From positions 1 to 35,073 of the forward strand of contig JAOPZA010000197.1 of assembly GCA_025964325.1 (NCBI GenBank): DNA of 35,073 bases, in the 5' to 3' direction. The notes under the pieces are model-generated. The model searched no databases. It was not told where the DNA came from and worked only from the letters and a program-made list of their open reading frames with translations. Origin of the DNA: Conexibacter sp. (GTDB taxonomy: Bacteria; Actinomycetota; Thermoleophilia; Solirubrobacterales; Solirubrobacteraceae). Numbering within the stretch: the first letter of the stretch is position 1; each line of letters begins with the position of its first letter. Shown in pieces: positions 26,524-30,188 of the stretch. A program made the translations under genes and the position numbers.

Positions 26524-26570
26524 CCGGGCGGCCGGGCGGGATCGACTCCCGCGCGGCCGCCCGGTTTTCT
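26524..26570 (+). terminator. Intrinsic terminator of purH
   Basis: CCGGGCGGCCG (26524-26534) and CGGCCGCCCGG (26554-26564) form a perfect 11-bp stem, extended inside by GCGGG/CCCGC with a small bulge, and are followed by TTTTCT. It starts 6 nt after the purH stop and is the clearest terminator in the window. Confidence 0.85.
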
Positions 26571-26627: not shown

Positions 26628-27020
26628 ATGTCGCAGCCACACTCCCGTCAAGCCGCTCGCGTGCCGACGTTCTCGCTCGAGAAGGCGTCGCTCGAGAACG
26701 GCGACGCGCTCGTCGTCGTGCACGGCGAGCTCGACCTCTTCACGGCCCCGGACCTGCGCGAGCAGCTGCGCGCGCAGATCGACCGCCGCCCGGCGCGGCT
26801 CGTCGTCGACCTCGCGGACTGCAGCTTCGTCGACGCGAGCGGCTGCCATGCGCTGCTGACCGCCTCGCGCCGGCTGGCGGGCCACGGCGGCCGGATCGCG
26901 ATCGTCAACACGCATCCCGCGATCGCGCGCGTGTTCGCCGTGATGGGGCTCGACGAGCTCTTCCCCGTCGTGCCGACGCGCGCCGACGCCGCCGCCGCGC
27001 TGCGGCGGAGGGCACCCTGA
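26628..27020 (+). CDS. STAS-domain protein (anti-sigma factor antagonist-like)
   Basis: A 130-residue protein read from ATG 26628; GTG 26661 is a possible shorter start. The fold order is ALVVVHGELDLFTAPDLREQL, ARLVVDLADCSFVDASGCHALLTASRRL, GRIAIVNTHPAIARVFAVMGL, typical of SpoIIAA/RsbV-like STAS domains. Ser71 in VDASG lies in the segment that carries the phosphorylated Ser in such antagonists, so control by a serine kinase/phosphatase is plausible. Neither an anti-sigma kinase nor a sigma factor is nearby. It is followed by the c-di-GMP enzyme 60 nt downstream, which suggests joint signalling but does not prove it. A GGAGG at 26605-26609 lies too far (18 nt) from the ATG to be a normal binding site. 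Confidence 0.88.
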   Translation: MSQPHSRQAARVPTFSLEKASLENGDALVVVHGELDLFTAPDLREQLRAQIDRRPARLVVDLADCSFVDASGCHALLTASRRLAGHGGRIAIVNTHPAIARVFAVMGLDELFPVVPTRADAAAALRRRAP

Positions 27021-27025
27021 GCTAC

Positions 27026-27073
27026 AGCCCCTCGAGCGCGCTGCCGATAGGGTGCGGGTGAGGTCGAGGGGCT
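27026..27073 (+). promoter_or_regulatory. Inverted repeat covering promoter and ribosome binding site of the c-di-GMP gene
   Basis: AGCCCCTCGA (27026-27035) and TCGAGGGGCT (27064-27073) are perfect 10-bp inverted arms. The loop holds a -10-like TAGGGT (27048-27053), and the right arm contains GAGGGG, the Shine-Dalgarno sequence 9 nt before ATG 27081. Confidence 0.6.
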
Positions 27074-27080
27074 CAAATCG

Positions 27081-30000
27081 ATGCTGTCCGTACCGCGTGG
27101 CCGCCGCCGGCGAGCCGCCCGCATGACGCTACGGCCGCGCCGGCTGCCGATCGCGCTGCTCGGCGCCGTCCTGCTCGCCGCTGCGACCGCGGTCGCCACG
27201 ATCGCCGTCGTCCACCAAGAGCGCCGCTCCGCCGCGCATCAGCAACAGCGGCTCGCGGAGCAGTCGCTCGGGCTGCTGCAGCGAGCGCTGACGGTCACGA
27301 GCGACCGTCTCGTCGACCTCGGCAGCCTGCTCGCGACCGCGCCCGACCTGCCGCAGCGGCGCTTCCAGGCCGCCGCCGCGCACCTCCTGACGACCCCGGC
27401 GCTGGCGTCCGTCTCGTACGTGCGGATCATCCCGGCGTCGCAGCGCGCGACCTACGAGCGCGACCACGGACCGATCCTCGCCGACATCCGCGGCACGCCG
27501 TCGGGGCCCCGCCTCGCCTACTACCCGATCGTCGCCTCCGTCTCGCGCTACGCGCGCGCCCCGGTCGGGTTCGACGAGGGGGCCGCGCCGCATCGGCTCG
27601 CCGCGATGCAGGCCGCCGCCGACCTCGCCACGACGCGAGCGACGACGCCGCTCCAGCTCGCCAGCGGGACGGGCGCCGGAATCGTCCTCTTCACCCCCGT
27701 CTACCGCAGCGGGAGCTCGCCGACGACGGTCGCCGCCCGCCGCGCCGACGCGATCGGCTTCGCCGTCGGCGTCTACCGCCTGCGCGACGTGCAGACCGTG
27801 GTCGCATCGCTGGTTCCGTCGAACGTCGCGTTCGGGCTCAGCGTCGACGGCCAACCCGCGGTCGCGCGCGGCGACCGGATGAGCCATGCGCTCTCGAGAA
27901 CGGTGTTCGGAGCCGGGCACCGTTGGACGGTGACCGTCTCACGGCCGGCACCCAACTACGGCAGCGCCTGGACGATCATCATCTCCGGGGCCCTGCTGAC
28001 GATCGCGCTCGGGCTGCTGATCTTCCAGGCCTCCCGCCGCGAGCGCTACGCGCTCGAGCTGGTCGCCGTCCGCATGGCCGAGCGCGACCACGCCGAGGCG
28101 GAGCTGGGCGACGCCGAACGGCGCCACCGCCTGCTGGCGGAGAACGCGACCGACCTGATCCTCGTCTTCGACCCGAGCGGCGCGATCACGTACGCGTCGC
28201 CCGCCTGTCGCGAGCTGATCGGCTACGCGCCGGAGGAGCTCCTGGGGCGCCGGCCGGACGAGTTCGTCCATCCCGAGGATCGCGAGCACGTCGTCGGGGC
28301 GCGTACGCGCATCGTCGACGACGACGGCACAGTCACCGTCACGAGCCGGCTGCGCCACCGCGACGGGCACCACGTCTGGACCGAGGCGCGCGTGCGCCGG
28401 GTGCTCGACCCCGCGAGCGGGAAGCCGGTCGAGGGCCAGGCGATCGTGCGCGACATCAGCGAGCGCGTCGCCGCCGACCAGGCGCTGCGCAACAGCGTCG
28501 AGCGGCTCGCCGGCGCCGAGCAGCGCTTCCGCACCGCCTTCGAGGCGGCGCCGATCGGGATGGCGCTGTCCGACCTCGAGGGGCGCTTCATCCAGATCAA
28601 CGACGCGCTCTGCGCGATCACGGGCTACACCCGCGACGAGCTGGCGGACATGAGCTTCTCCGAGCTGAGCCATCCCGGCGACATCTCGCTCGACGAGGAG
28701 ATGATGCGCAGCCTGCTGTCCGGCGAGCAGACCACGTACTGGATGGAGAAGCGCTTCGTCGACGTCGTCGGCCAGGTCGTCTGGGTCGCGGTCCATGCGA
28801 CGCTCGTGCGCGCGCCGGACGGCACGCCGCAGCACTTCCTCGGGCAGATCCAGGACGTCTCCGAGCGCGTCCGCTACGAGGCGCAGCTCCAGCACATGGC
28901 GGATCACGACCCGCTGACCGGCCTGCTCAATCGCCGCTCGTTCGAGCGTGAGCTGAATCAGCACATCCGCCAGGTCGAGCGCTACGGGCCCGAGGGCGCG
29001 GCGCTCGTGCTCGACATCGATCGCTTCAAGCACATCAACGACACGCTCGGCCACAACGTCGGCGACGAGTTGATCGTGAAGGTCGCGCAGACGTTGCGGG
29101 CGAGGCTGCGTGACAGCGACGTGCTGGCGCGGCTCGGCGGCGACGAGTTCGCCGTGCTGCTGCCGCGCGGCGGCGCCGCGGAGGCGGAGGCGGTCGCGCA
29201 GGCGGTCCTCGCCGCCGTGCGGTCGCAGTCCGTCATCACGCCCGCCGGCCGGCGCCGCTCGGTCACGGCGAGCATCGGCGTCGCATTGTTCGCGGACACC
29301 GAGCGATTGACTGCCGAGGACCTGCTCGTCAACGCCGACCTCGCGATGTACGACGCGAAGGAGGCGGGTCGCGACCGCGCGACGACGTTCACGCAGCACG
29401 AGCGCGGGGCATCCCGGATGAAGGCGCGGATCACGTGGGCGGAGCGGATTCGCGAGGCGCTCGAGGAGGATCGCTTCACGCTCTACGCGCAGCCGATCGT
29501 CGAGTTGCAGAGCGGCGAGGTGCGCCAGCACGAGCTGCTGTTGCGGATGCTGGACGAGCACAACGACGTGATCCCGCCGGCTGCGTTCATCAACATCGCG
29601 GAGCGCTTCGACCTGATGCAGGAGATCGACCGCTGGGTCGTCTCGCGCGCGATCCGCCACATGGGCGAGCAGCGGCGCGCCGGACGCGACCTCGTCTTCG
29701 AGGTGAACATCTCCGGCAGCTCGACCGGGGACCCGGATCTGCTGACGCTGATCGAACGCGAACTGCGCACGAGCGAGATCGACCCGGTCAACCTGGTTCT
29801 CGAAGTGACAGAGACGGTCGCTGTCGCGAACATCCCGCGCGCGCAGCAGTTCGCAGCACGACTTGCCGAGCTCGGCTGTCGTTTCGCGCTGGATGACTTC
29901 GGCGCCGGCTTCGGCTCGTTCTACTACCTCAAGCATCTGCCGTTCGACATCCTCAAGATCGACGGCGAGTTCGTTCGCTCCTGCACGACGAGCCAGACCG

Positions 30001-30188
30001 ATCAACTGCTGATCCGGGCCGCCGTCGACATCGCGCGCGGTATGGGCAAGCAGACGATCGCCGAGTACGTCGGCGATCACGAGACGCTTGAACTACTGCG
30101 CCGTCTCGGGGTCGACTACGCACAGGGATTCCACATCGGACGGCCCGCTCCGCTCGAGCAGCGGCTGGCGCTCGACCAAGTCCGCTAA
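27081..30188 (+). CDS. CHASE-PAS-PAS-GGDEF-EAL cyclic-di-GMP enzyme
   Basis: A 1,035-residue membrane receptor starting at ATG 27081 with GAGGGG 9 nt upstream (ATG 27123 is a later alternative). A basic start leads to a membrane segment at 22-44, an outside CHASE-like sensor at about 70-285 (SVSYVRIIPASQRATYERDHG, PVGFDEGAAPHRLAAMQAA), and a second membrane segment at 297-315. PAS domains follow at about 345-462 and 478-597, both with PAC-like ends (RDISERV, QDVSERV). The cyclase domain has intact GGDEF at 686-690 and an inhibitory RxxD at 677-680. The EAL domain keeps ELLLR (Glu818), VNIS, LEVTE, DDFGAG, LKID and AEYV, so both synthesis and breakdown of c-di-GMP look possible. The ligand sensed is unknown. 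Confidence 0.95.
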   Translation: MLSVPRGRRRRAARMTLRPRRLPIALLGAVLLAAATAVATIAVVHQERRSAAHQQQRLAEQSLGLLQRALTVTSDRLVDLGSLLATAPDLPQRRFQAAAAHLLTTPALASVSYVRIIPASQRATYERDHGPILADIRGTPSGPRLAYYPIVASVSRYARAPVGFDEGAAPHRLAAMQAAADLATTRATTPLQLASGTGAGIVLFTPVYRSGSSPTTVAARRADAIGFAVGVYRLRDVQTVVASLVPSNVAFGLSVDGQPAVARGDRMSHALSRTVFGAGHRWTVTVSRPAPNYGSAWTIIISGALLTIALGLLIFQASRRERYALELVAVRMAERDHAEAELGDAERRHRLLAENATDLILVFDPSGAITYASPACRELIGYAPEELLGRRPDEFVHPEDREHVVGARTRIVDDDGTVTVTSRLRHRDGHHVWTEARVRRVLDPASGKPVEGQAIVRDISERVAADQALRNSVERLAGAEQRFRTAFEAAPIGMALSDLEGRFIQINDALCAITGYTRDELADMSFSELSHPGDISLDEEMMRSLLSGEQTTYWMEKRFVDVVGQVVWVAVHATLVRAPDGTPQHFLGQIQDVSERVRYEAQLQHMADHDPLTGLLNRRSFERELNQHIRQVERYGPEGAALVLDIDRFKHINDTLGHNVGDELIVKVAQTLRARLRDSDVLARLGGDEFAVLLPRGGAAEAEAVAQAVLAAVRSQSVITPAGRRRSVTASIGVALFADTERLTAEDLLVNADLAMYDAKEAGRDRATTFTQHERGASRMKARITWAERIREALEEDRFTLYAQPIVELQSGEVRQHELLLRMLDEHNDVIPPAAFINIAERFDLMQEIDRWVVSRAIRHMGEQRRAGRDLVFEVNISGSSTGDPDLLTLIERELRTSEIDPVNLVLEVTETVAVANIPRAQQFAARLAELGCRFALDDFGAGFGSFYYLKHLPFDILKIDGEFVRSCTTSQTDQLLIRAAVDIARGMGKQTIAEYVGDHETLELLRRLGVDYAQGFHIGRPAPLEQRLALDQVR

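What the first reader, a model, noticed from the sequence alone, without database searches (positions are those of the whole stretch)
27026..27073. Inverted repeat that can hide the ribosome site of the c-di-GMP gene
Perfect 10-bp arms flank a -10-like box, and the right arm contains the Shine-Dalgarno GAGGGG. In a transcript reading through from the STAS gene the stem would block translation. A transcript from the internal promoter would start near 27060, lack the left arm and be translated. This gives promoter-dependent translation from one sequence; alternatively the repeat is a protein operator.
Basis: partly seen in the sequence, partly recalled or inferred. Interest (0 to 1): 0.55.

Follow-up and report, generated by a model that had tools for sequence, protein, structure and literature searches.

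The report
Flagellar-type promoter for c-di-GMP gene
Between the two arms of a probably accidental inverted repeat lies a conserved promoter of the flagellar/WhiG type, and its transcript appears to begin directly with a tiny coding sequence whose stop codon overlaps the start of a cyclic-di-GMP enzyme gene.

Summary
The 10-bp arms are real (27026-27035 / 27064-27073). They are ordinary in this GC-rich window: 11 such repeats, against 8.2 +/- 2.9 in Markov sequence. None of the five Conexibacter relatives with the gene keeps them. What is conserved, in 6 of 6 orthologous loci, lies between the arms: CTACAG-N14-TGCCGATAGGG, followed 8-9 nt later by GTGA. This is a promoter of the flagellar/WhiG sigma class. 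The predicted transcript starts at or within about a base of a GTG (27058). That GTG opens a 7-22-codon leader ORF; its stop codon overlaps the start of the GGDEF-EAL gene (in own, ATGA at 27123) in 5 of 6 loci, and via a second short ORF in the sixth. Of nine CCGATR sites upstream of 20 other Conexibacter GGDEF-EAL genes, eight have an in-frame start at the same 14-16-nt distance. The genome encodes WhiG and the c-di-GMP-binding anti-sigma RsiG. Best reading: a c-di-GMP-linked promoter making a leaderless, translationally coupled mRNA. The hairpin switch is not supported. No transcript was measured.

The parts
27022..27027 (+). -35 element CTACAG (TACA counted as the -35 tetramer)
   Evidence: Invariant in 6 of 6 Conexibacter loci; one exact match of the whole motif per genome in 6 of 7 genus genomes
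27043..27049 (+). -10 element GCCGATA of flagellar/WhiG class (TGCCGATAGGG invariant)
   Evidence: consensus TAAA / GCCGATAA as printed in PMC8325347
27057..27058 (+). Predicted transcription start (inferred from -10 spacing, not mapped)
   Evidence: inference; conserved 8-9 nt from GCCGATA to GTGA in 6 of 6
27058..27126 (+). Short leader ORF GTG...TGA, 22 codons (VRSRGSNRCCPYRVAAAGEPPA), predicted leaderless
   Evidence: counterparts of 7-22 codons in the 5 other loci, peptide sequence not conserved
27123..30188 (+). CHASE-PAS-PAS-GGDEF-EAL protein, conserved start ATG 27123 overlapping the leader stop (ATGA)
   Evidence: Pfam; N-terminal homology MTLRPRRLPIALLG / MTLRRRRMPVALLG / VSPRRRRMPIALLG etc.
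27081..27083 (+).
   Evidence: no in-frame upstream start in G002 or G006, TTG in G004, adjacent GTG in G003 and G005
27026..27035 (+). Left arm of inverted repeat AGCCCCTCGA (overlaps the last two bases of the -35 element)
   Evidence: not paired in relatives
27064..27073 (+). Right arm TCGAGGGGCT (codons 3-6 of the leader ORF)
   Evidence: not paired in relatives
26628..27020 (+). STAS-domain (anti-sigma-antagonist-like) gene upstream; absent from this place in G006
   Evidence: Pfam PF01740 1e-19, TIGR00377

Best explanation
The feature is a promoter of the flagellar/WhiG sigma class (-35 TACA at 27023, -10 GCCGATA at 27043) driving the GGDEF-EAL gene. RNA polymerase starts at about 27057-27058, so the mRNA begins at or next to GTG 27058 and is translated without a Shine-Dalgarno leader as a 22-codon leader ORF. 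Ribosomes ending at TGA 27124-27126 restart at the overlapping ATG 27123 and make the c-di-GMP enzyme. The genome encodes the sigma factor WhiG and its c-di-GMP-armed anti-sigma RsiG, as well as a flagellar-cluster FliA. The likely logic is feedback: high c-di-GMP lets RsiG hold WhiG and shuts off this c-di-GMP-turnover gene. Shown by sequence: promoter conservation, spacing to GTGA, stop/start overlap, presence of WhiG, FliA and RsiG. Inferred: the transcription start, leaderless initiation, reinitiation, which of the two sigmas acts, and the direction of the loop. The inverted repeat is most likely a chance feature of this strain.
For: CTACAG and TGCCGATAGGG are invariant in 6 of 6 loci while the 14-nt spacer and the DNA beyond GTGA diverge. 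Exact motif once per genome in 6 of 7 genus genomes; the 7th, G001 (77% complete), gave no full-length ortholog. The element stays with the gene when STAS is missing (G006). TACA/GCCGATAG meets the criterion used for Rubrobacter WhiG promoters (up to two mismatches to TAAA/GCCGATAA; 12 of 20 candidates had a mapped start, 5 of the 12 before DGC/PDE genes; PMC8325347, section read). Flagellin genes of the genus carry TCAAG/TAAAG...GCCGAT. WhiG: NF004935 339.4 bits with a partial query, cut-off 343, and PDB 6pfj E 1.5e-80. RsiG: PF22802 68.5 bits, cut-off 27, and PDB RsiG chains. Stop overlaps the gene start in 5 of 6 loci, and a second short ORF's GTG in G006; chance about 4.5-4.8% per locus. 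Of 9 CCGATR sites upstream of 20 other GGDEF-EAL genes, 8 have an in-frame start 14-16 nt on, background 1.65% of positions; here the distance is 14. In 146 family genomes an RTG lies 14 nt from CCGAT 137 times against 66 at 17 nt, binomial P 7e-7.
Against: No mapped 5' end, ribosome profile or expression data. WhiG and FliA share promoter specificity, so the sigma is not assigned. The -35 differs from the flagellin sites (TACA rather than TCAA/TAAA, and spaced one base further). The motif does not extend beyond the genus at the best full-length homologues in other genera (no GCCGATA in L009 or L011). The six loci are related, so the overlap probabilities are not independent; the eight leaderless-looking genes fall into about five families. 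In this strain the conserved start 27123 has the weakest Shine-Dalgarno of the six, whereas ATG 27081 has GAGG at good spacing, so 27081 may also be used here.
Confidence: 0.7

Rival explanations
1. One reading: in read-through RNA from STAS the arms pair and hide the Shine-Dalgarno of ATG 27081; the internal transcript lacks the left arm and is translated.
For: Arms are perfect and the predicted fold of 27015-27100 contains the stem; an internal start near 27058 would remove the left arm; GAGG 7 nt before ATG 27081.
Against: Arms unpaired in 5 of 5 relatives; fold not better than shuffles, z -0.50; such repeats are common in the window; ATG 27081 is not a conserved start; G006 has no STAS gene at this place to read through from.
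Confidence: 0.06
2. The inverted repeat is an operator: a dimeric regulator binds both arms across the promoter.
For: The arms straddle the -35 to about +16 region; left arm overlaps the -35 element.
Against: Not conserved in 5 of 5 relatives that keep the promoter; arm centres 38 bp apart with a 28-bp gap is wide for one dimer (general knowledge).
Confidence: 0.07
3. An ordinary housekeeping-sigma promoter (TANNNT = TAGGGT 27048-27053) with Shine-Dalgarno-led translation from ATG 27081; the leader ORF is accidental.
For: TAGGGT fits TANNNT in this strain; ATG 27081 has a fair Shine-Dalgarno.
Against: The other five loci read TAGGGA, without the T, while GCCGATAGGG is invariant; stop/start overlap recurs with leader lengths of 7, 19 or 22 codons; G002 and G006 have no in-frame upstream start at all.
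Confidence: 0.12

Closest known systems
WhiG/RsiG c-di-GMP switch and its promoters in Rubrobacter (PMC8325347; passages and sections 7 and 14 read)
   Same: Same promoter class before a DGC/PDE gene; WhiG and single-motif RsiG (E-x3-S-x2-R-x3-H-x3-D) encoded in the genome
   Different: The paper's text names Conexibacter twice and describes no Conexibacter promoter in the passages read; 'leaderless' occurs 0 times in its main text
Leaderless coupled small ORFs of mycobacteria (PMC4633059; passages read)
   Same: Leaderless RTG opens a short ORF ending in an RTGA overlap with the next gene; the linkage is conserved, the peptide is not
   Different: Here in Conexibacter, at a flagellar/WhiG-class promoter of a c-di-GMP gene; the transcription start is predicted, not mapped; two relatives use TGATG instead of RTGA
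FliA (sigma-28) class promoters of flagellar genes
   Same: GCCGAT -10 core; flagellin genes of the genus have it
   Different: TACA one base further upstream instead of TCAA/TAAA; flagellin genes keep a 5' UTR

Membership tests
Flagellar/WhiG-class promoter | TAAA and GCCGATAA with at most two mismatches in all, within 200 bp of a start codon | tested here: met
   TACA-N16-GCCGATAG, two mismatches; criterion
Flagellar/WhiG-class promoter | Element conserved at orthologous loci | tested here: met
   6 of 6 loci
Flagellar/WhiG-class promoter | Mapped transcription start just downstream and dependence on WhiG or FliA | not testable with these tools
   no transcript data
RsiG-WhiG c-di-GMP switch (presence in the genome) | WhiG sigma and single-motif RsiG encoded | tested here: met
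   (WhiG model 339.4 bits against cut-off 343, with a query lacking the N-terminus)
Leaderless coupled small ORF | Short ORF of 5-50 aa with its stop overlapping the next start | tested here: met
   own, G004 and G002 RTGA; G003 and G005 TGATG; G006 GTGA into a second short ORF
Leaderless coupled small ORF | mRNA begins at the RTG | tested here: inconclusive
   spacing only: 14 nt from CCGAT, the same distance as at 8 of 9 sites of other c-di-GMP genes, which lie at 14-16
RBS-sequestering hairpin | Pairing kept across relatives or stability above shuffles | tested here: not met

The most novel reading that the evidence does not exclude
In Conexibacter the c-di-GMP-sensing WhiG/RsiG pair feeds back on a set of c-di-GMP enzymes by making leaderless mRNAs, so that these enzymes are chosen both by sigma factor and by translation mode; at this gene a leaderless leader ORF adds a third control point through coupled translation that could respond to ribosome state.
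Probability: 0.25. Interest if true: 0.62.

Novelty: new member of a known kind. Interest (0 to 1): 0.4.

Why it matters
It extends the WhiG/c-di-GMP network, described for Streptomyces and Rubrobacter, to target genes in Conexibacter, for which no targets appeared in the passages read. It suggests that c-di-GMP enzymes there are commonly made from leaderless mRNAs, one of them through a conserved coupled leader ORF. It also corrects the likely start codon of the gene and removes a hairpin-switch reading that conservation does not support.

Tried and rejected
The hairpin and operator readings were tested by conservation, folding and chance rate, and set aside. A strict genome-wide regulon for CTWCAG-N15-GCCGATAGGG was sought in 121 family genomes with one mismatch allowed: 36 of 121 had a match, the reversed-pattern control also matched in many genomes, and apart from this gene and a CpsB-like gene no recurrent target stood out. 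A loose TCAAG/TAAAG scan of the genus was enriched over its reversed control, but that control is unfair because ATCGGC is a common coding word; I use it only for examples. In that call several sites lie inside long ORFs and are probably chance. RsiG was first looked for next to the two sigma genes (none); a degenerate motif then found it elsewhere. I could not decide between WhiG and FliA. Homologues in other genera were checked only at their best loci. Of 28 other listed GGDEF-EAL matches in the genus, 20 were fetched and 8 were not. Within the genus alone the RTG-at-14 excess is weak (10 against 6).

Full report
Place. The window is contig C169 of a 4.34-Mb, 251-contig genome. G002, a single 6.36-Mb contig, is probably C. 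woesei (recalled, from size). Gene order is purH (named from its sequence, not from a family search), STAS (26628-27020), then a CHASE-PAS-PAS-GGDEF-EAL gene.

The repeat. Both arms are exact. The window has 11 distinct repeats of this kind against 8.2 +/- 2.9 in Markov-1 sequence, and 20 of 100 simulations reach 11. The stem forms in the predicted RNA, but the fold is not better than shuffles. In the five other orthologous loci the homologous positions give 2-7 of 10 pairs in the same register, and no inverted repeat of 7 bp or more with a 3-40-nt loop was found around the motif. G005, with 7 of 10 pairs, is the nearest approach.

What is conserved. All six loci carry CTACAG, 14 variable bases, TGCCGATAGGG, and 8-9 nt after GCCGATA the string GTGA. 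The exact CTACAG-N14-TGCCGATAGGG motif occurs once per genome in 6 of 7 genus genomes. In G006 the STAS gene is absent at this place and purH's end is followed directly by the element, so the element belongs to the GGDEF-EAL gene. G006 also lacks the CHASE part of the protein, yet keeps the promoter. The housekeeping reading TANNNT fits only the window's own sequence, because the others read TAGGGA.

Class of promoter. The published flagellar/WhiG criterion is TAAA and GCCGATAA with up to two mismatches (PMC8325347, section 14); TACA and GCCGATAG meet it. Flagellin genes of the genus have TCAAG or TAAAG before GCCGAT, and further sites precede cheW-like and flgB-like genes (these two names are from the look of the sequence, not a family search). 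The own genome has two sigma factors over the FliA_WhiG cut-off: one is WhiG-like, the other lies among flgK, flgL and flgG-like genes. RsiG is present, with the histidine variant of the c-di-GMP motif reported for C. woesei. The same paper reports that 5 of 12 start-confirmed promoters in Rubrobacter radiotolerans precede DGC/PDE genes.

Leaderless leader ORF. From GCCGATA the start of transcription should fall at about 27057-27058, that is, at the GTG. In each locus this GTG opens an ORF of 7, 19 or 22 codons. In five loci the stop overlaps the conserved GGDEF-EAL start: ATGA in own and G004, GTGA in G002, TGATG in G003 and G005. In G006 it overlaps the GTG of a second, 9-codon ORF, which in turn ends in TGATG at the gene. 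The gene start was fixed independently by N-terminal homology (the P-x-ALL region). By simulation an overlap has a 4.5-4.8% chance per locus; the loci are related, so the product should not be taken literally. The arrangement is what Shell et al. 2015 describe in mycobacteria as coupled small ORFs, with the linkage conserved and the peptide not (PMC4633059, passages).

Wider pattern. In 20 of the 28 other listed GGDEF-EAL matches of the genus, the upstream regions contain 9 CCGATR sites. Eight have an in-frame start codon 14-16 nt after the first C, where 1.65% of positions would; this locus has 14. These eight fall into about five gene families, and 11 of the 20 regions have no such site. Across 146 family genomes, RTG at 14 nt from CCGAT in TCAAG-N15-CCGAT sites is found 137 times against 66 for RTG at 17 nt.

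Caveats. Nothing here is transcript evidence. The sigma is not resolved. In the own strain the conserved start has a weak Shine-Dalgarno while ATG 27081 has a fair one, so a longer protein made from 27081 is possible here, and the hairpin could then matter in this strain alone. Paper searches for leaderless with WhiG, FliA or c-di-GMP, Conexibacter woesei with leaderless, Thermoleophilia with c-di-GMP, promoter and phosphodiesterase and leader ORFs with diguanylate cyclase showed no listing that describes this arrangement; these are searches of an open-licence library only, read as listings.

Noticed in passing
L142, L155, L158, L140 (flagellin genes), own copy L146: Conexibacter flagellin 5' UTRs share a hairpin GGGCGAC-ATGGA-GTCGCCC and a second AAGGA at the Shine-Dalgarno, resembling paired CsrA sites (ANGGA, recalled). 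Seen by eye.
   Followed up: no
G000:C10:10756-10786 (L170, L247) and G001:C629 (L161): A CpsB/CapC-like phosphatase gene (PF19567) carries a very similar promoter, CTYCAG-N14-NGCCGATAGGG.
   Followed up: partly
window 26524-26564: 18-nt arms (94% complementary, 5-nt loop) followed by TTTTCT just after purH: a likely intrinsic terminator separating purH from STAS.
   Followed up: no
L034/L162 (G006): The orthologue has lost the CHASE domain and the neighbouring STAS gene but keeps the promoter and two chained short leader ORFs.
   Followed up: partly
146 family genomes: Start codons pile up 14 nt after CCGAT in TCAAG-N15-CCGAT sites (137 against 66 at 17 nt), suggesting many leaderless genes under sigma-28-type promoters in this family.
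   Followed up: partly
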